From Siphonobacter sp. BAB-5405 (lineage in GTDB: Bacteria; Bacteroidota; Bacteroidia; Cytophagales; Spirosomataceae), in the NCBI RefSeq assembly GCF_002872335.1, contig NZ_NJAG01000036.1, positions 372,001 to 436,000 of the forward strand: a stretch of 64,000 nucleotides of DNA. The letters are read 5' to 3'. The position numbers and the translations under genes were made by a program. Below, one piece after another: positions 2,038 through 40,062 of this stretch (position 1 is the first letter of the stretch; every line of letters begins with the position of its first letter). Below the pieces are notes generated by a model. It saw only the letters and a program-made list of their open reading frames with translations. It ran no database searches and was not told the DNA's origin.

Positions 2038-5000
2038 TTAAAATTTGAGGTTCAGACCAAATTGATACGTAATGGTGCTCGGACCCGTGTTATTGATATT
2101 GCCCGTGGTAGTATTCGACACGTTAGAAGTCGTGGTCGGATCAATACCGCTGGCGTATTCAGGATCAAAGCCGTTGTACTTCGTCCAGACAAAAGGATTC
2201 AGCACGTTGGCGTACACCCGCAGGCTTTTCACACCGATTTTATCCACCAGCGTTGTCGGTAACGTGTAGCCTAATACGATATTCTGAACTTTCACGAAGG
2301 ATACATCTTTGTAATAGCCGACGCCCGATACACCCGCCCAGTAAGGACCGATGTTATTCGGCATGGGATAGGTATTGGATACCCGGGAAGGCGTCACCTT
2401 ATTATCGGCCATGTAATAGTCTTCGTAGATTTTGTTCGTACCGCGATCGGAGTAGTTCAGGAAAATGCTGTGGAAGGCACTATACACCTGAGCTCCCTGG
2501 CGGGCAAACATCGAGGCCGACAGATCAAAGTTTTTATACGTAAACTGCGTCGAAAAGCCTCCCGTCCATTTCGGGTCTTTCTGACCAATGATGGCCCGGT
2601 CGTTCGCACTACTAATCTTGCCGTCATTATTCAAATCCTTGACGCGAGCCTGACCCGGTAACTGACCGTATTTAACGGCCTGTTCGCGTTCGCTCTCCTG
2701 CCAGATACCGTCAAATACGTAGGTGTAGTTCACATTGATGGGTCGGCCAATAAACCACCAGTTCCCCACCAAATCTTCTTTTTTATCCAGCAGATCGACG
2801 ATTTCGTTTTTATTCCGGGCAAAATTGAAGGAGGTTGACCATGTAAAGTTTTTCGTCGAGACGTTCACGGTCCGTAACGAGAACTCGATGCCCTTATTCC
2901 GTACCGATCCTACGTTGTCTTTAATTGAGGACCAGCCCGTTTCAATGGGAATATCACGATTCATCAAAATGCCCCGCGAAAGCTTGTTATAGACATCCAA
3001 CGTACCAGAAATCCGACCGTTAAAAAATCCGTAATCCAGACCAAAATCCAGCTCACGGGTACGTTCCCAGGTCAGACCGGGGTTGGGCAGTCGGCTGGGG
3101 CCGTAGCCCAGAGCAACCGTTCCACCATAATCGTAGAAGGTGGGATCGCTCAGGTTCATCTGGCTTTCGTACGCACTGATGTTGTTGTTGTTCCCCGCAA
3201 TACCGGCACTCACGCGGAGTTTCAGATCCGAAATAAAGTTGGCTGATTTCAGGAAGTTTTCTTCCGACAATTGCCAGCCCACCGCCAGTGAAGGGAACGT
3301 AGACCACTTGTGTCCTTCGGCCAGTTTGGAGGAACCATCCCAACGCGTGGCCAGCGTAGCGAAGTAACGATTCTTGAACACGTAGTTCAGGCGGGCCATG
3401 TAGGAAAGAATCGACACCTGCCGGAAGTAACTCGTACCCGACTGACGGTTGGTGGAAGACCCCAGGTTGTAGTACGAAGAGTTGAAGGGCAGATCGTTCA
3501 CCCGTAGGCCATCGCCTTCAAAGCGATCCTTCTGCATACTGAACAGACCCGTGAATGTAAAGCGGTGATCGCCGAGGTTTTTACGGATGGTCGCGATATT
3601 GTCGAAAATGTACGAAAGAGATTGAGCGTTAGAACGCTGAGCATCGGGTAAGAGACCATCGCCTACGCCGGTCAGGGAGCCCCAGTACCGACCGTTCCGC
3701 TCGAAATTTACACTCGGCGAAAACGTCGAGCGTAATTCCAGCCAGTCATTTAACGCATATTGTAAGTACAGATTTCCGACCCCGAACAAGCGGCGGTTGT
3801 TGTTCTCGGTATTGGGAATTTCCAGCAAAGGGTTTACCGTACTGGTAAAACTCGAAATGGTTGTGGAATTGGGTACCGGAATTTGTCCGGGCCGGAACAT
3901 CAGGTTGCCATTCGCATCGTAGGGACTGAAAATCGGAGCCATGTTGAAGGCATTCCGTACGGCATCATCGCTACCCCGCTCAATGTCGGAAAGCGAGAAG
4001 TTAACGCTCATGCCGGCCGACCAGTGGTCATTCATCCGGCCATCCACGCTGGCTTTGAAGTTGTACCGATCCAGACTTTCCTGCAAAAGATTACCTTTTT
4101 CTTTCTGGTAACCCGCACCAATCAAATACTGCACGGTATTTTTTTCACTCGCTCCTGAAATGGTCAGCCAGTGGTTCATTTGCGTACCCGTCCGCAGTAC
4201 TAAATCCCGCCAGTTGGTATAATCACCATTGGCTACCCGTTGTTGCACCACTGGGTTTCCCAGGCTACCGATGGTGTTATCGTAGTTAGTTCGTCCGGCA
4301 ATGAGTTCGGGAGAGATAAACGTGTTTTGGCGATACTCCCACCATTCGGGACCCGTCATGAAGTTCGGCATCCGGGCTACTTCCCGAATCCCCACGTAAC
4401 CGTCATAGGAAATCGTCGTGCGACCTTTGGCACTTGAACCGCCCTTGGTCGTCACCAGAATTACCCCATTGGAACCCCGTGAACCGTAAATAGCCGTTGA
4501 GGCGGCGTCTTTCAATACGTCCATTTTGGCAATGTCCTGCGGGTTGAGAAAGTTGATGTCGGGAACAATAACGCCGTCCACTACGTACAGCGGCTGACCA
4601 CCCGCCAAAGAGTTCTGACCCCGAATCTGCACGGAATAACTCGCCCCGGCCCGGCCCGAACCGGCGGAAATATCCACCCCCGCAATCTGACCCTGAGCCC
4701 CCTGTAAAGGACTTACCGTACCCCGATCGGCGATCGTTTTTCCTTCAATACTACCTACGGCGGTGGCTACCTCCGCTTTTTTCTGGGTGCCGTAACCTAC
4801 AACGACCACTTCCGAAAGAGCTTTGGAATCGGCTTTTAATACGACGTCCAACACCGATCCGGCTCCTACAGCGACTTCCTGTGGCGTATAACCTACGTAA
4901 GAAAAAATGAGGGTAGCTCCTGCTTCACTGAAGGTGAGTCGATACTTTCCTTCTTCGTTGGTGGTGGTTCCCTGCTGCGAGCCTTTTCGAAGAATGCTCA

Positions 5001-34640: not shown

Positions 34641-34677
34641 AAAAAAAGAGTTGCCTGTAAAACAACAGGCAACTCTT
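34641..34677 (-). terminator. Intrinsic terminator at the end of the rsr-RlaP-RNA transcript
   Basis: AAGAGTTGCCTGT (34646-34658) pairs perfectly with 34665-34677 around a six-base loop, followed by seven T on the minus strand. It is the first good minus-strand terminator downstream of the tRNA-like RNA cluster. The words TTGCCTGTTG also occur at the 3' edge of the first tRNA-like RNA (near 35041-35050). Confidence 0.85.
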
Positions 34678-35049
34678 CAAAAGATTAATGAAAACATTAT
34701 CTTATTTGAAAACTTTTATCAAAAAACATGATTAATACCTAGTCCAGTTAAATAATATTTATGTATTAAGTTGTTTAATTACTTGACTAATGATTAAATT
34801 TTAAATCACCTATTTTACTATGAATTAGATGATTTAATAAAGTAGCTACTGAAGCTTTTAAATAAATATTATTTACTAATACAATTATGAATAGTACCCC
34901 TGACTTATACTCGAATGAGGCTTAAATATTCTTTGATCTTAATTTTACTTTGAACTCGTTCATGTTTTGTACTATAGTTTTAAGCGTTTAAAATAAGTAT
35001 AGATTAGCGTATGAATCCAATGCTACACAAATAATAAAGGGCAACAGGC

Positions 35050-35144
35050 AAACAGTGCTTTATTAACTGAACTACAAGGCAGGGCTCGAACCTGCGACCT
35101 TCCGGCCTGTCGGCTCGGATGTTCTAACCGAAGGATCACTGTTT
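35050..35144 (-). ncRNA. tRNA-like RNA 1 (Y-RNA-like, permuted)
   Basis: On the minus strand the ends pair as AAACAGTG (35144-35137) with CACTGTTT (35057-35050), 8 bp. Inside lie, in order, GGTTAGAAC (second half of a D-arm), an imperfect anticodon-like hairpin (35119-35101), a perfect T-arm GCAGG-TTCGAGC-CCTGC (35095-35079), then TAGTTCAGTTAAT (first half of a D-arm, 35074-35062). The D-stem halves GTTC and GAAC are complementary but in reversed order, so the tRNA-like sequence is opened within the D-loop, and only four bases replace the acceptor stem. No CCA end or normal acceptor stem exists. It follows RlaP and belongs to the same strand as rsr. Confidence 0.7.
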
Positions 35145-35164
35145 TACGGCACCTTTAAGGGTAG

Positions 35165-35276
35165 AGAAGGGTAATAAGCTCGGGGCAAAAATCTGCTCTA
35201 CCTACTGAGCTACCTGGCTGGCCAGAGCCGGATTCGAACCGGCGACACGAAGCAACGCCGCGATACGACACCTTCT
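35165..35276 (-). ncRNA. tRNA-like RNA 2 (YrlA-type circularly permuted tRNA mimic)
   Basis: Best-formed of the four. Minus-strand order: 5' outer stem AGAAGG (35276-35271), linker, perfect T-arm GCCGG-TTCGAAT-CCGGC (35243-35227), a closed mini-hairpin TCTGG-CCAG-CCAGG (35226-35213) in place of an open acceptor stem, a perfect D-arm TAGCTCAGTAGGTAGAGCA (35212-35194), linker, 3' outer stem CCTTCT (35170-35165). T before D with a closed acceptor and the ends emerging where the anticodon arm would be is a circular permutation of tRNA. Bacterial YrlA Y RNAs are known tRNA mimics that bind Ro60 through the end-paired stem; the nearby rsr gene supports this identity. Confidence 0.8.
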
Positions 35277-35285
35277 TTTCTTTTT

Positions 35286-35414
35286 AACGGGTGGGTTGTA
35301 ATGATTCAGGAGTAACCAGCGATTCGGGTGGGTGACCTTTCGGAGGATTCGAACCTACCTACTGACTTGGTCAATAGGTTCACCCTCACCAGACTCTATA
35401 CGAAGTAACCCGTT
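35286..35414 (-). ncRNA. tRNA-like RNA 3 (T-arm only, Y-RNA-like)
   Basis: Minus strand: outer stem AACGGGT/ACCCGTT (35414-35408 with 35292-35286), then TTACTTCG, an inner stem GGGTGA/TCACCC (35385-35380 with 35335-35330), a hairpin of 8-10 bp (35379-35357, loop CAA) and a T-arm GTAGG-TTCGAAT-CCTCC with one mismatch (35358-35342). No D-arm is recognisable. It shares overall architecture and the AWCGGGWTACTTCG start with RNA 4. Confidence 0.6.
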
Positions 35415-35503
35415 TCTACGATATCCTTAGAACTAACGTTTGCTACCATTCAGTAAGACATCAAGCTTGGCAAAGCTTTATTTCAATACTAGGCGGTATC
35501 CCC

Positions 35504-36262
35504 TCAGGCATAAAACATGGATTTTACTTGAATACTATAATTCGTTAAGACTTTATCTAATTTTGCCTGAGTCGAACTACCTCCTGGCGTACTGCCCTCA
35601 AAACGATACAGACACGCTTTGATGACTTGTACGATCTTTTGTTTATCTGCTTCCCTTACTTCTTCTTTTTCCGTTTGCTGTCTTTTTATTTCCAGACTAG
35701 CCTTTGCAAGTTTGATCACCTCAGATTCAATACCAAACTGCTTGAAGAGATCGTCGATCCAAAGCTCTGGCACTACTTGCTGGCTAGCTAATTCCGCGGA
35801 TAGCAGTCCCCGAATGCAGTAAAACGCTACTTTATACGTAAACTTCTGATCGCTTTCCAGCTTGTAAAAGTGACTCTTGGCCAACGAGAGGTAATGATAG
35901 TAGAGAGCTTTAAAATTGATATTTTCGGTAACTTCCCTACGGAATGTAGTCCAATCGGGTAGTTCATTCCAATACATCAGATCGGCTCGCACCCACTCAA
36001 AAACTGTAGGGTTACTTTTTTGTAATAATCCAAACATCTTATCCAGACCATACGAGACAAAATCCAGTTCTCCATCCATTACCTCCCATACATCCCGCTG
36101 TTTCTTAAAATCAAAATAGTTTGTTTTGGCCGGAAGGTGGAAACCTCGCACATCAAAGTCACTATCAGGGCTGGCAATTCCCCAAAGCCGGCTTCCACTT
36201 TCAATGTAAAAAAGCGGAATTTCGCTTTTGTCCATAAAAAGGCTAGCGATTCTATTTTTCAT
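35504..36262 (-). CDS. RlaP-family nucleotidyltransferase (RNA-repair associated)
   Basis: A 252-residue DNA-polymerase-beta-fold nucleotidyltransferase of the RlaP/YcgL family. The catalytic motif is GSRLWGIASPDSDFDVRGF (about 22-40), with the GS pair and two Asp metal ligands; a third carboxylate is likely in GELDFVSYGLDKMF (about 65-80). A helical C-terminal part follows (YYHYLSLAKSHFYKLESDQK, TYKVAFYCIRGLLSAELAS). RlaP proteins were predicted from genomic context to act in RNA repair, probably adding nucleotides to damaged RNA ends. Here it sits between tRNA-like RNAs downstream of a Ro60 gene, which fits that role. No ligase (RtcB, Rnl) is present in the window. Confidence 0.85.
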   Translation of the reverse strand: MKNRIASLFMDKSEIPLFYIESGSRLWGIASPDSDFDVRGFHLPAKTNYFDFKKQRDVWEVMDGELDFVSYGLDKMFGLLQKSNPTVFEWVRADLMYWNELPDWTTFRREVTENINFKALYYHYLSLAKSHFYKLESDQKFTYKVAFYCIRGLLSAELASQQVVPELWIDDLFKQFGIESEVIKLAKASLEIKRQQTEKEEVREADKQKIVQVIKACLYRFEGSTPGGSSTQAKLDKVLTNYSIQVKSMFYA

Positions 36263-36310
36263 ACAAAGTCATTTAGAAAAGTAACGAACGGAATAAGGAG
36301 CAACGGGCGA

Positions 36311-36399
36311 ATCGGGAGCGGGGTATCGCTAAGAGGACTCGAACCTCCATCCTGACCGAAGTCATAATGCCCCCCCTACATGCTGCGAAGTATCCCGAT
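36311..36399 (-). ncRNA. tRNA-like RNA 4 (between rsr and RlaP)
   Basis: Minus strand: outer stem ATCGGGA/TCCCGAT (36399-36393 with 36317-36311), TACTTCG, a GGGG/CCCC inner stem, a 9-bp hairpin with one mismatch capped by a cUUCGg tetraloop (36369-36348), and a T-arm GGAGG-TTCGAGT-CCTCT (36348-36332). No D-arm. Upstream bases GATGC-CGTA-GCATC (36405-36392 region) form a competing hairpin that shares ATC with the outer stem. The remaining 36400-36494 adjoining rsr contains a GGGCT/AGCCC hairpin. Confidence 0.6.
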
Positions 36400-36494
36400 G
36401 CTACGGCATCCTTTGGGCTGGGCTTCTAAAACTTAGCCCGTACCGTACTAAGCACAGTTACGTGTAAAAACCTTACCGTTACGCGTTATTAAAA

Positions 36495-38057
36495 TCAATA
36501 ATTCCTAATCATTTCCAGAATTGACTCACCCTTTTCAAGGGCTTCCAGTACCCCGAAGATTTTATCACTCCAGCCCGCAATCAGGTATACATCCTTCCGG
36601 AGGACTTGTAGGGGCGTTTTGCCGTAACCACTTAAGTCAAACAAATACAGACGGGCTGAAGGGTGAATCTCCTGTTTATACTTCCCCCACAGGTTACTTA
36701 GCTGATTGCTCCCTGAGCCGCTGTTCCAGAGCTGCAAATCCGTGAAAAACATGATTTTATCCATTTTCTCGCGGCGGTCTATCAGTTCTTTTAATACCAG
36801 ATAGCCATTAGTAGCATAGCCTACCTCTCCTTCCCGTTTGTAGAATTCATGCACATTGGCGAGTATTCGATTTCTAGGAACCTGGATTCGCTTCCAGCTA
36901 TCGCCGAACATTCCAACCTGTACATTCCTGCAACGGGATTGTAACAGCATAGCTAGCATCAAACCAATATCGTAAAGTAAGATACTCGACTGCGGTGAAA
37001 CAGGCTTCTGCATCGAACCCGATACGTCGCAGGCTAGCAGTACGCGGGTATGCTCCTCAAAACCCTGAATCCGACGGGCACTTTGAACTACGGCCTTTTC
37101 CAATCCGTCCAAAACTTCTCCTACGTACCCTTGACCACTGAAGACTTTTTCAATCCAGTTTTCCTGCTTATGACGCTTCATTTCCGTTCCCTGTAACTCA
37201 CGATAAGCGGCTAAATAGCGGAAGGGAAACTGCTTCGACCGGGCGACCTGTTCAGGCGAGGCTAAAGTATTGACGGCTTTTTTCAGATGTTCATACGAGA
37301 CCCCGGCTTGGATCACATTTCGCAGGTTTCGCAACAAAGCCATATATGCCAGTTTGTTACTATCGATCAGTTCTTCCCACTTTTGTTGAAAAGCCGCTTC
37401 TTTATCCGTGGCTGATTTAAACTTTTGCTGCCCCAACGCTGACAATTCGGTTTCCCAGGTATAGGGTACAGGTAATGTGTTGGTTACTATTTGATTGAAA
37501 ATTTCCTGTTGAGCTGGATTTTTAGCTTTGGGATGAACTAAAAACAAGGCATCCCGCAGTTTAATAGCCGTATTTCGATTGTATTTAGCAAATTGATACG
37601 CATCAAATTGATTGAACGCCGAAGCCAGCCCTTTTTGCAGTTGCTTCGATAACCGATTGAGTTTTTTCAAACCGGTCCGTTCGTTTAGAGCCTGATAGCA
37701 GGCCAGCAGCTCCGTGATTTCATCGGCACGGGCAATGACCCGCTCCGTCGTTCGGGCGACGAGGTCATCCCCGGAGTGAATGCGGGCCAATTCTGCCAGT
37801 AGTACCAGAGGAGCCGAACGCAGATACATCTGATGCCGGGCGTAAATGGCTAGTTTTGCTACAAAACCCGGATCATTCTGAGCAATCAGATTGCGTATCC
37901 GAATGAGTCGCTCATCATTGGGCTCGTAAAAGGTATCATTCAAAGACCAGGTTACTACGGTTGAATACAACTCCAGAGCTGGATTCATGCGGTAGGCTTT
38001 CGCTCCTTCATGGTTCAGGATCGGCTGACTTTGTTGAGGCGTTGTATTGAATTTCAT
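36495..38057 (-). CDS. rsr: Ro60-like TROVE-domain RNA-binding protein
   Basis: A 520-residue ring-shaped RNA chaperone homologue (Ro60 orthologue, bacterial Rsr). The TROVE/HEAT-repeat part spans about 1-330 (NPALELYSTVVTWSLNDTFY, GFVAKLAIYARHQMYLRSAP, RNTAIKLRDALFLVHPK). A von Willebrand A domain with an intact MIDAS follows: DVSGSMQKP (about 345), a Thr/Asn element around YATNGYLVLKEL (about 420) and FFTDLQLWN (about 440). Known Rsr proteins bind Y RNAs and misfolded or damaged RNA and cooperate with exonucleases. Here it heads an operon-like array with RlaP and four tRNA-like RNAs and is divergent from a WYL regulator. Confidence 0.93.
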   Translation of the reverse strand: MKFNTTPQQSQPILNHEGAKAYRMNPALELYSTVVTWSLNDTFYEPNDERLIRIRNLIAQNDPGFVAKLAIYARHQMYLRSAPLVLLAELARIHSGDDLVARTTERVIARADEITELLACYQALNERTGLKKLNRLSKQLQKGLASAFNQFDAYQFAKYNRNTAIKLRDALFLVHPKAKNPAQQEIFNQIVTNTLPVPYTWETELSALGQQKFKSATDKEAAFQQKWEELIDSNKLAYMALLRNLRNVIQAGVSYEHLKKAVNTLASPEQVARSKQFPFRYLAAYRELQGTEMKRHKQENWIEKVFSGQGYVGEVLDGLEKAVVQSARRIQGFEEHTRVLLACDVSGSMQKPVSPQSSILLYDIGLMLAMLLQSRCRNVQVGMFGDSWKRIQVPRNRILANVHEFYKREGEVGYATNGYLVLKELIDRREKMDKIMFFTDLQLWNSGSGSNQLSNLWGKYKQEIHPSARLYLFDLSGYGKTPLQVLRKDVYLIAGWSDKIFGVLEALEKGESILEMIRNY

Positions 38058-38096
38058 AACTGTCTTTGTTTTCGTTGACGATACAAAGGTTCAAGG

Positions 38097-38123
38097 CTAC
38101 TACGCAGTCTTTGTGCGTAGTAG
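38097..38123. promoter_or_regulatory. Inverted-repeat operator between rsr and the WYL regulator
   Basis: CTACTACGCA (38097-38106) and TGCGTAGTAG (38114-38123) are perfect inverted arms with a 7-base spacer GTCTTTG. They lie in the 100-bp divergent promoter region, about 40 bp upstream of rsr and 35 bp upstream of the WYL gene, the position expected for an autoregulated divergent operator. Confidence 0.65.
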
Positions 38124-38157
38124 AAAATAATTTCTAATTTTCTGAAAATTTTTTCTC

Positions 38158-39225
38158 ATGCCGCTCAATCGCAACGCCCTCATTCGCTACCGAACCATTG
38201 ATCAATGTCTGCAGAATCGATACCGCACGTGGACTCTGGAGGATTTGATGGAAGCCTGTTCACAAGCCCTGTACGAGTATCAGGGCCTTGAAAAGGGGGT
38301 AAGCCGTCGAACCGTTCAGTCCGATCTGGAGATGATGCGAAGTTCGAAACTGGGCTATGAAGCTCCCATTGTCGTAGTGGACCGTAAGTACTATATCTAC
38401 GCCGATAAGCATTTCAGTATCACCAACATTCCTTTGAATGCTCAGGATATGCAACTTCTGGGGGAAGTGGCGGGTTTATTACAACAATTCAAAGGACTGA
38501 ACCACTTTGCGGACTTGCGGGAAATGGTTAGTAAACTGCAGGACAAGATCTACACCCAGCAAACGAGTAGTTTACCCGTAGTGGATTTTGAAAAGAATGA
38601 GCATTTACTGGGATTGAATTACATCGAAACTATTCGGAAGGCCATTGTTTCAAAAACAACGCTTTGTATGACGTACCAATCCTTCCGGGCCCGGCAGTCG
38701 GCTACGTTCTGTTTTAGTCCGTATCTGTTAAAAGAGTACCGCAACCGCTGGTTTGTACTCGGGCAATCGCATCAGAAACGTAAGCCAATTCTTACATTAG
38801 CCTTAGACCGGATTCATGCTTTGCAGGAAGATTTGCATGAAGCCTATCGCCCCAACGAGATCCTGGATTTACAAACCTTTTATTCCGATGTAATCGGCGT
38901 AACCAAGACCCCTGGTCAGAAAAACTGTGAAGTAGTTTTCTGGGTAGCTGCCTCCAATGCCCCCTATGTGGTTACGAAACCCCTGCATGCGTCGCAGGAG
39001 TTGCTCTCCAAAGATTCTTCCGGTTCAGTATTTCGCATCCGGGTTATTGTTAACTTTGAACTGGAACGGGAGCTCCTTGGCTTTGGCGGGAAGGTAAAAG
39101 TGCTACGGCCCCGCATGCTAAGAGATCGCATGAAGAAGAACGTTCAGGCCGCCCTGGAACATTACCAGGAGGACTGTTCATCCCGGGTAATTGAGCAGCC
39201 TTCCAGCCAAAATGAACTGCTATAA
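38158..39225 (+). CDS. WYL-domain transcriptional regulator
   Basis: A 355-residue cytoplasmic regulator with an N-terminal winged HTH (NALIRYRTIDQCLQNRYRTW to GVSRRTVQSDLEMMR, about 5-62) and a WYL domain around 170-235 whose signature reads RNRWFVLGQS, followed by TLALDRIHAL and a C-terminal WCX-like extension. WYL domains are thought to sense nucleic-acid ligands and often control phage-defence and RNA-repair genes. Divergent transcription from rsr across a short palindromic promoter makes it the likely switch for the Ro60/RlaP/tRNA-like RNA operon, possibly responding to damaged RNA. Confidence 0.9.
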   Translation: MPLNRNALIRYRTIDQCLQNRYRTWTLEDLMEACSQALYEYQGLEKGVSRRTVQSDLEMMRSSKLGYEAPIVVVDRKYYIYADKHFSITNIPLNAQDMQLLGEVAGLLQQFKGLNHFADLREMVSKLQDKIYTQQTSSLPVVDFEKNEHLLGLNYIETIRKAIVSKTTLCMTYQSFRARQSATFCFSPYLLKEYRNRWFVLGQSHQKRKPILTLALDRIHALQEDLHEAYRPNEILDLQTFYSDVIGVTKTPGQKNCEVVFWVAASNAPYVVTKPLHASQELLSKDSSGSVFRIRVIVNFELERELLGFGGKVKVLRPRMLRDRMKKNVQAALEHYQEDCSSRVIEQPSSQNELL

Positions 39226-39360: not shown

Positions 39361-40062
39361 ATGTTAGATCAATACCAACAACAGCATCCCTATTTACTGG
39401 CTTTAGATTCCATCATTTTCGGCTTTGACGGCGAAGGCCTAAAAGTATTACTCGTGAAGCGGGGTATCGAGGCCGAAACCTGGTCGTTGATGGGGGGATG
39501 GCTGCAACCGAACGAAAGCCTGGAGGACGCTGCATGCCGCATTGTTTTTGATCTGACAGGCCTTACCAATGTGTATCTGGAGCAACTGTATGCCTTTGGG
39601 AATCCTACTCGCGACCCTATTACGCGTACCGTATCCGTTGCTTACTTTTCGTTAATTAAAATCGATGAGTTTGAAGGAACCTTGTCCAGTACGTTCCAGG
39701 CTCGCTGGTTTTCCATTTATGAGTTACCTCCCCTGCTCTTCGACCACGGAGATATGGTAGATCTCGCCCTGAAGCGACTTCGCTACAAAGCTGCTCAACA
39801 CCCCATCGGTTTTGAGCTCTTACCCGAAAAATTTACAATTCCCCAATTGCAAAAACTGTACGAAGCGATTTATAATACGGAATTTGACAAACGCAACTTC
39901 AGTCGTAAAATCCTGTCTACAAATCTGTTAACCAAATTAGACGAAAAACAGAAGGGATATTCCCGGCGAGGGGCTTACTTATATCAGGTCAATTCCAACA
40001 AATATCAGCTTACGCATAATGCGTTTCTAAACTTTATTCCCAGTCCGGAGCTAAGCCTTTAA
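39361..40062 (+). CDS. NrtR/AraR-like Nudix-domain transcriptional regulator
   Basis: A 233-residue regulator: a Nudix-fold sensor (about 10-150) and a C-terminal winged helix (FTIPQLQKLYEAIYNTEFDK and NFSRKILSTN, about 160-225). The Nudix box reads GGWLQPNESLEDAACRIVFD, keeping the first Gly and Glu but lacking the REVxEE catalytic glutamates, so it should bind and not hydrolyse its ligand. In Bacteroidota such proteins (AraR type) sense pentoses and control hemicellulose genes. The GH67 gene next door makes a xylan-derived sugar a reasonable ligand. Confidence 0.88.
   Translation: MLDQYQQQHPYLLALDSIIFGFDGEGLKVLLVKRGIEAETWSLMGGWLQPNESLEDAACRIVFDLTGLTNVYLEQLYAFGNPTRDPITRTVSVAYFSLIKIDEFEGTLSSTFQARWFSIYELPPLLFDHGDMVDLALKRLRYKAAQHPIGFELLPEKFTIPQLQKLYEAIYNTEFDKRNFSRKILSTNLLTKLDEKQKGYSRRGAYLYQVNSNKYQLTHNAFLNFIPSPELSL

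What the first reader, a model, noticed from the sequence alone, without database searches (positions are those of the whole stretch)
34641..39225. RNA-repair/quality-control island: Ro60 + RlaP nucleotidyltransferase + four tRNA-like RNAs + WYL regulator
Directly seen: a TROVE/vWA Ro60 gene, an RlaP-family nucleotidyltransferase and four elements with tRNA T-arms, all on one strand and ending at one terminator; a WYL regulator is divergent. Known: bacterial Rsr works with Y RNAs that mimic tRNA, and RlaP and WYL families were linked to RNA repair by gene context. Inferred: the RNAs tether or present substrates to RlaP and Ro60. Four divergent Y-like RNAs interleaved with a nucleotidyltransferase, without RtcB, is a layout I do not recall as characterised.
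Basis: partly seen in the sequence, partly recalled or inferred. Interest (0 to 1): 0.92.

Follow-up and report, generated by a model that had tools for sequence, protein, structure and literature searches.

The report
Ro60 operon with tRNA-mimic RNAs
A bacterium of the Bacteroidota carries a gene cluster in which the ring protein Ro60 sits with an RNA-repair-type enzyme and four small RNAs that share one likely Ro60-binding stem but carry differently connected imitations of transfer RNA, and related clusters recur with variations in its relatives.

Summary
The locus holds a WYL-WCX regulator (38158-39225, +), a divergent Ro60 orthologue rsr (36495-38057, -), an RlaP nucleotidyltransferase (35504-36262, -) and four Y-RNA-like elements on the rsr strand. 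They share a "handle" (TGYCGTA-N9-TWCTTCG, head, pairing strand, linker ending GTTRC, lower stem) that I found 237 times (score 13 or more) in 67 Bacteroidota rsr loci, with strong covariation. Several such RNAs beside rsr are the rule in this set (three or more in 52 of 61 loci); RlaP near rsr is uncommon (7 of 66). What looks new is the heads: tRNA-like bodies joined to the handle at different points, namely the acceptor end (E1, E2), the anticodon arm (E3, YrlA type) and the D-loop (E4). Some anticodon-grafted heads outside the window keep an anticodon loop (17 of 73 exact). A palindrome upstream of rsr is conserved in 51 of 65 loci. Best reading: a WYL-controlled Ro60-RNA operon whose heads dock tRNA-acting enzymes. 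The mechanism is inferred; no expression or binding data exist here. It is a new variant of a known kind; the central prior papers could not be read.

The parts
38158..39225 (+). WYL-WCX transcriptional regulator, divergent from rsr
   Evidence: WYL E=5.7e-12, WCX E=3.7e-13; homologues on the opposite strand to rsr wherever found in related loci (an ORF of this cluster in 37 of 67 loci)
38100..38120 (.). palindromic putative operator CTACGCA-N7-TGCGTAG, 43 to 63 nt before the rsr start
   Evidence: the exact form TACGCA-N7-TGCGTA is found at one place in this genome (the TGCGCA variant was not searched there); CTRCGCA-N7-TGCGYAG with <=2 mismatches within 300 nt upstream of rsr in 51 of 65 loci (33 exact), 0 of 65 in a control stretch inside rsr (the 65 include the probable duplicate pair L063/L090); coordinates
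36495..38057 (-). rsr, Ro60 orthologue (TROVE + vWA)
   Evidence: NCBIfam Rsr model E=4.1e-8 but 32.1 bits, far below its cut-off of 900; PDB 9l5y/9kop TROVE protein E=1.7e-27
36295..36413 (-). Y RNA E1 (119 nt), between rsr and rlaP; head read as acceptor-grafted: GGGG/CCCC stem, long hairpin with UUCG loop, T-arm
   Evidence: homologues; pairing read by eye; covariation counted only in the related GGGGARGAAT subclass, to which E1 does not belong; tRNA profile sees its T-arm side only, 11 bits
35504..36262 (-). rlaP, Pol-beta-fold nucleotidyltransferase; GS, DxD and a third Asp present
   Evidence: alignment (G23, S24, D35, D37, D67 invariant in 9 sequences; that these are the catalytic residues is recalled)
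35307..35428 (-). Y RNA E2 (122 nt); head read as acceptor-grafted with 10-bp hairpin and T-arm
   Evidence: predicted fold; T-arm side only in the tRNA profile, 7 bits
35166..35275 (-). Y RNA E3 (110 nt); anticodon-arm-grafted permuted tRNA (T-arm, closed acceptor, D-arm), YrlA type, no anticodon loop
   Evidence: Rfam YrlA 46.8 bits E=1.5e-8; head joined to itself matches tRNA profile positions 4-74 with the anticodon arm missing, 18.9 bits, against 10.0 unjoined
35036..35156 (-). Y RNA E4 (121 nt); D-loop-grafted permuted tRNA (D-stem encloses anticodon-like arm and T-arm)
   Evidence: RNAalifold consensus of E4 and 6 relatives; (profile sees the T-arm side only, 13.9 bits)
34645..34678 (-). 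14-bp terminator-like hairpin with T tract
   Evidence: a like hairpin about 350 nt after E4 in L007

Best explanation
Shown by sequence: this is a WYL-associated Ro60 gene cluster with rsr, an RlaP whose active-site residues are present, and four Y RNAs. Each Y RNA has the same two-helix handle and a different tRNA-like head. The handle is joined to the tRNA body at three alternative places (acceptor end, anticodon arm, D-loop; firmest for the anticodon arm, from homologues for the D-loop, from folding and homologues for the acceptor end), so each RNA leaves a different set of tRNA arms exposed. Inferred: under RNA damage the WYL protein releases the palindromic site; Rsr is made and loaded with the Y RNAs through the handle; the heads then dock enzymes that recognise tRNA (RlaP here; RtcB or a T4-type RNA ligase with PNKP in sister loci; host PNPase and tRNA-modifying enzymes) next to the damaged or misfolded RNA held by the Rsr ring. 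Grafting at different points would let one ring protein recruit enzymes that read different faces of tRNA.
For: Handle: 257 elements in 67 loci against 9 on the opposite strand and 7 in reversed sequence; swap test, pairing score >=15 in 90 of 147 own and 18 of 1470 swapped downstream regions; the Y-R pair, placed without using it, is C-G 77, T-A 37, T-G 2 of 121. Heads: joined end to end with themselves they match a tRNA profile at >=20 bits in 50 of 199, against 7 of 199 unjoined and 0 of 199 shuffled. Junctions: 85 of 192 heads score >=12 bits and 70 span the join: 61 anticodon arm, 6 variable region, 2 D-loop, 1 acceptor; E3 with corrected ends spans it too. D-loop class: E4 and 6 relatives, anticodon stem covaries. 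Operator in 51 of 65 loci, control 0 of 65. RtcB, RlaP or T4-type ligase in the fetched flank in 34 of 66 loci (families checked on examples).
Against: No expression, binding or enzyme data. 32 of 66 loci have no such repair gene in the fetched flank (flanks differ in length), so a nearby enzyme is not obligatory. RlaP of this type is in the flank in only 7 of 66. 38 of 237 elements have heads under 30 nt, which a docking role for tRNA arms does not explain. 107 of 192 heads of 30-125 nt stay under 12 bits against the tRNA profile. E1, E2 and E4 do not themselves give a junction-spanning match. WYL is found in the flank of 37 of 67 loci.
Confidence: 0.5

Rival explanations
1. Decoy panel: the heads imitate RNase targets (tRNA anticodon loops, in some loci a 23S rRNA segment) so that anticodon nucleases or toxins are titrated or sensed on Rsr.
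For: Of 73 T-then-D heads, the 7-mer 17 nt before the T-stem equals an anticodon loop of a tRNA seen here in 17 (0 to 3 at the other 14 offsets); 8 of 20 related loci scanned carry arrays of 7-15 tRNA genes; four heads hold 19-25 nt at 96-100% identity to the own genome's 23S rRNA. PMC7790460 (passages seen) itself suggests YrlA as a competitive inhibitor of an anticodon nuclease.
Against: None of the four window heads carries an anticodon loop that I recognise (E3: arm missing; E1, E2, E4 by eye, E4's arm having an unusual loop). That paper reports that YrlA is not a substrate of the nuclease.
Confidence: 0.25
2. RYPER-like decay: the heads tether PNPase to Rsr for structured-RNA degradation, as described for Deinococcus; RlaP is a passenger.
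For: Known mechanism for Rsr and Y RNA (passages in PMC7790460, and PMC8394870).
Against: Does not explain why heads differ in connection or why ligases and nucleotidyltransferases recur nearby. PNPase binding was not testable.
Confidence: 0.2
3. Permuted tRNA genes: the anticodon-grafted RNAs are precursors that are spliced in the handle to make working tRNAs.
For: Circular permutation is real; RtcB in the flank in 24 of 66 loci.
Against: E3 lacks the anticodon arm; E1, E2, E4 have non-tRNA arms; the handle is conserved also on heads too short to hold a tRNA.
Confidence: 0.03
4. E1 is mainly a cis-acting leader of rlaP rather than a trans-acting Y RNA.
For: E1 ends 32 nt before the rlaP start.
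Against: Elements of the same class follow rsr in loci without RlaP in the flank, with the same handle.
Confidence: 0.05

Closest known systems
YrlA Y RNA (Rfam RF02553; Salmonella rsr-yrlBA-rtcBA)
   Same: E3 and other anticodon-grafted elements: basal stem, T, acceptor and D arms; Rfam hits of 36-47 bits in the window and in 4 of 4 further loci searched in E-value mode.
   Different: All those hits are under the gathering score of 69, and 12 other loci gave no YrlA hit at gathering. In these five loci elements of the other classes are not hit. Some Bacteroidota heads keep an anticodon loop, for which the Rfam consensus printed has no room.
rsr-yrl-rtcBA RNA repair operon
   Same: Ro60 orthologue, Y RNAs and an RNA-repair-type enzyme in one run (PMC7790460 passages).
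   Different: WYL instead of RtcR, RlaP instead of RtcBA at the locus, four Y RNAs.
Deinococcus Rsr / Y RNA / PNPase (RYPER)
   Same: Rsr with Y RNA.
   Different: PNPase link untested here; Deinococcus Y RNAs were not compared.
RlaP (PF10127), RNA-ligase-associated nucleotidyltransferase
   Same: Family match and conserved motif residues.
   Different: No RNA ligase at this locus; some other Bacteroidota loci have a second, longer RlaP gene that is absent here.
Circularly permuted tRNA genes (PMC3978253, search listing only)
   Same: tRNA halves in swapped order.
   Different: Here fused to a handle beside rsr and with more than one graft point.

Membership tests
Ro60/Rsr | TROVE ring domain plus vWA domain | tested here: met
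   PDB TROVE match
Ro60/Rsr | reaches the curated NCBIfam Rsr equivalog cut-off | tested here: not met
   32.1 bits against 900: a divergent homologue, not the modelled equivalog
Ro60/Rsr | binds Y RNA through the basal stem | not testable with these tools
   handle conservation is indirect support
Bacterial Y RNA (in the wide sense) | encoded next to rsr, 5' and 3' ends paired in a conserved stem | tested here: met
YrlA (RF02553) | reaches the Rfam gathering score | tested here: not met
   E3 46.8 of 69 bits; E1, E2, E4 no match
YrlA (RF02553) | T-arm, acceptor-like stem and D-arm on the basal stem | tested here: met
   E3 only; not E1, E2, E4
RlaP PF10127 | profile match and nucleotidyltransferase motif | tested here: met
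rtcBA-type RNA repair operon | RtcB and RtcA in the operon | tested here: not met
   no RtcB among the genes of the locus; RtcB on another contig; RtcA was not searched for in the genome
RYPER | PNPase tethered by the Y RNA | not testable with these tools
   needs pull-down
Permuted tRNA gene | gives a mature tRNA with anticodon | tested here: not met
   E3 has no anticodon arm; processing itself not testable

The most novel reading that the evidence does not exclude
Bacteroidota Ro60 carries a panel of RNA mimics: one conserved handle grafted onto tRNA bodies at the acceptor end, the D-loop or the anticodon arm, with anticodon loops of several identities and in some loci a 23S rRNA segment. 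Together they display the RNA faces that RNases break and repair enzymes read, so that Ro60 acts as a programmable platform for sensing or repairing damaged tRNA and rRNA.
Probability: 0.25. Interest if true: 0.85.

Novelty: new variant of a known kind. Interest (0 to 1): 0.62.

Why it matters
What bacterial Y RNAs do with their tRNA-like heads is open. The three graft points, the anticodon loops of several identities and the recurring repair enzymes give specific, testable predictions about which enzymes each head should bind. The handle motif with its covarying pair can seed a covariance model (the Rfam YrlA model missed these loci at its gathering score), and the conserved palindrome gives a direct way to ask what signal the WYL regulator reads.

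Tried and rejected
Rejected: chance T-arms (opposite-strand and reversed controls); ordinary tRNA genes in the window (none). Single-sequence folding gave no signal. RNAalifold on 20 acceptor-grafted heads misaligned and gave a poor consensus; a motif-anchored pair count on the GGGGARGAAT subclass replaced it (18 heads, 17 or 18 of 18 paired at each of 5 positions), and the window's E1 and E2 are not in that subclass. My detector first placed the 3' strand of E3 wrongly, running into E4, so the E3 junction rests on a wrong end; redone with the right end, it spans the join with more bits. The same chaining affects a few other heads (for example L071_6120 and L072_6108, which also enter the 73, and L073_6123). 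The detector also misses elements: L099 shows a clear 5' motif but no element of score 13 or more. In one search, 44 of 73 fit the loose form YTNNNRN, but some of these come from the handle's own CTTCG, so I rely on the 17 exact matches. Of the 40 family genomes with an rsr match, G160 was not fetched. One search failed on a script error and was redone. Rfam E-value search of a long 23S-like head found nothing useful. The Rsr scan of viral contigs gave 2 loci with weak handle candidates. The family-wide pattern search matched 98 of 222 genomes, more than have rsr, so by itself it is not specific. Key papers are not in the library: Sim 2020, Chen 2014, Wang 2018, Sim 2018, Burroughs 2016, Greiling 2018, Wolin 2013, so I cannot exclude that parts of this are in print; the paper searches made were made, seen as listings, and passages only of five papers.
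Full report
WHAT IS THERE. On the minus strand, in order: rsr (38057-36495), Y RNA E1 (36413-36295), rlaP (36262-35504), Y RNAs E2 (35428-35307), E3 (35275-35166) and E4 (35156-35036), then a terminator-like hairpin (34678-34645). A WYL-WCX regulator (38158-39225) is divergent. Pfam confirms RlaP, TROVE plus vWA_Ro60, and WYL plus WCX. Rsr is divergent: 32.1 bits against a cut-off of 900 in the NCBIfam equivalog, but a solved TROVE protein matches at 1.7e-27. RlaP keeps the GS, DxD and a third Asp across 9 sequences.

THE FOUR RNAS ARE REAL ELEMENTS. Rfam at gathering scores finds nothing; in E-value mode E3 is YrlA-like (46.8 bits, E=1.5e-8; gathering 69) and E1, E2, E4 have no match. All four share a 5' motif, TGYCGTA, nine nucleotides, TWCTTCG (E1 exact; E2, E3, E4 with one mismatch each), and a 3' strand that pairs with the nine nucleotides, followed by a nine-nucleotide linker ending in GTTRC (ATTAC in E3) and a lower stem; lower stem 5, 4, 5, 5 of 5 pairs, upper 8, 7, 7, 8 of 9. 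In the own genome the relaxed pattern has 6 matches, 4 of them here, against 1 for the backwards control. E2's automatic score is 12.8, under the cut of 13 used below.

CONSERVATION. I took rsr relatives from the genus (3 of 6 genomes with TROVE), the family (40 of 222 genomes, some only fragments; 39 used, G160 not fetched) and named genomes (28 loci), giving 67 loci with the window; L063 and L090 are probably the same genome (equal contig length). A detector for the handle found 257 elements, against 9 on the opposite strand and 7 in reversed sequence; 237 score 13 or more, 209 of them downstream and 27 upstream of rsr. Of 61 loci with at least 2.5 kb downstream (L090 dropped), 52 have three or more, 5 have two, 2 have one and 2 have none. 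Because the detector selects for pairing, I also ran a selection-free test: for 147 distinct exact 5' motifs, pairing with their own downstream region scores 15 or more in 90, against 18 of 1470 when regions are swapped between loci. The internal pair between Y of TGYCGTA and R of GTTRC, placed without using it, is C-G 77, T-A 37, T-G 2, other 5, of 121. This shows a conserved RNA structure.

THE HEADS ARE tRNA-LIKE, CONNECTED IN DIFFERENT WAYS. I built a profile from 112 distinct real tRNAs of these genomes and searched the heads as they are, joined end to end with themselves, and joined after shuffling. At 20 bits or more: 7, 50 and 0 of 199. Of 192 heads of 30-125 nt, 85 reach 12 bits and 70 of these span the join: 61 in the anticodon arm, 6 in the variable region, 2 in the D-loop and 1 at the acceptor; 107 stay under 12 bits. 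So the heads that the profile recognises are mostly circularly permuted tRNAs with the handle in place of the anticodon arm, the known YrlA plan (review passages in PMC8394870). E3, with its ends corrected, matches profile positions 4-74 across the join with the anticodon arm missing: 18.9 bits joined, 10.0 unjoined. E4 and six relatives (two from its genus, the others from Mucilaginibacter and three Bacteroidota MAGs) give a consensus in which the D-stem encloses the anticodon-like arm and the T-arm, with covariation in the anticodon stem: the handle sits in the D-loop; two of the relatives, L054_7013 and L057_6878, also show the D-loop join in the profile test. E1 and E2 have, by eye and by the predicted fold of E2, a stem on the handle, one long hairpin and a T-arm, so the handle sits at the acceptor end; the related GGGGARGAAT subclass shows covarying pairs in the hairpin (18 heads, 17 or 18 of 18 paired at each of 5 positions). 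One relative, L085_2318, reads as a linear tRNA body with a Thr-like (UGU) anticodon loop and the handle as acceptor. E1, E2 and E4 themselves do not give junction-spanning profile matches.

ANTICODON LOOPS. In 73 heads with T-arm then D-arm, the 7-mer 17 nt before the T-stem is identical to an anticodon loop of a tRNA from these genomes in 17, against 0 to 3 at the other 14 offsets tested: loops read as Asn, Lys, Asp, Ile, Met, Glu, His and Thr among them. The Rfam YrlA consensus printed has no room for such a loop. The window's E3 also lacks it. A Xanthomonas phage TROVE locus (L149) has three handle candidates at up to 3 mismatches, one with an Asn-like loop, so the plan may not be confined to Bacteroidota; two gut phage loci (L148, L150) gave none.

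NEIGHBOURS AND REGULATION. Of 66 loci (L090 dropped), RtcB is in the fetched flank in 24, the RlaP of this type in 7 (3 in the genus), a second, longer RlaP in 7 and a T4-type RNA ligase in 4, with 34 having at least one (families checked on examples). RtcB is elsewhere in this genome. The order rsr, E1, rlaP, then the rest holds in the three genus loci, though in L008 E2 is poorly preserved and rsr is interrupted. A palindrome CTRCGCA-N7-TGCGYAG lies within 300 nt upstream of rsr with 2 or fewer mismatches in 51 of 65 loci (33 exact; 0 of 65 in a control stretch), usually 60-110 nt before the start. Its exact TACGCA form occurs at one place in this genome, which suggests a regulator with few targets. 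That WYL is the protein that binds it is inference; a WYL gene is in the flank in 37 of 67 loci.

MECHANISM. Shown: gene content, handle, head topologies (to the degrees stated), palindrome conservation. From the literature seen (passages in PMC7790460, and PMC8394870): Rsr binds the basal stem of Y RNAs, Y RNA heads can tether PNPase, YrlA is modified by tRNA enzymes, and the Salmonella operon answers to tRNA fragments. RlaP is predicted to restore lost nucleotides before ligation (PMC7824862, passages). Inferred: WYL senses a damage signal and controls the operon; heads dock tRNA-acting enzymes beside RNA held by Rsr, and different graft points expose different faces. I give this 0.5. The main rivals are a decoy role (0.25) and PNPase tethering (0.2).

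NOVELTY. Y RNAs near rsr that mimic tRNA are known (Chen 2014: title seen in a reference list; content recalled; paper not held). In the listings and the passages of five papers I saw no mention of alternative graft points, anticodon-bearing heads or the palindrome, but the central papers could not be read. I file it as a new variant of a known kind.

Noticed in passing
L042:9455-9669, L045:4920-5134, L065:8211-8427, and L088 (reverse complement 3391-3614): Y RNA elements with heads of 164-173 nt that begin with 19-25 nt at 96-100% identity to the own genome's 23S rRNA (AACGGTCCTAAGGTAGCG; recognised as 23S from recall, on the contig with tRNA-Ile and tRNA-Ala), in Chryseobacterium and in a member of the window's family: a Y RNA that may imitate rRNA.
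   Followed up: partly
L054, L057, L060, L083, L085, L086, L088, L091: rsr loci (8 of 20 scanned) with 7 to 15 real tRNA genes beside handle-bearing Y RNAs, alternating in L083; in L083, L085 and L086 the palindrome lies just before the first Y RNA, about 2 kb upstream of rsr, and in L083 some tRNA genes lie before it.
   Followed up: partly
about L083:2668-2840, L085 (reverse complement 2517-2679), L086 (reverse complement from 2987): A long Y RNA head (112 nt in L085) sharing a segment like TGAAAGATGAGCCCATAGCAGACT that is neither tRNA nor known to me.
   Followed up: no
L008, L098, L100, L101, L102: rsr copies that are interrupted or fragmentary, in L008, L098, L100 and L101 with handle elements still present: the locus is patchy (40 of 222 genomes in the family) and seems to decay.
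   Followed up: no
L149:2504-2957 (Xanthomonas phage Olaya): Upstream of the phage TROVE gene, three handle candidates with TGGTGTA instead of TGYCGTA and GTTCC instead of GTTRC, so that the covarying pair would be G-C (read by eye).
   Followed up: partly
window 39361-40062: Nudix plus NrtR-type winged-helix regulator next to the WYL gene.
   Followed up: no
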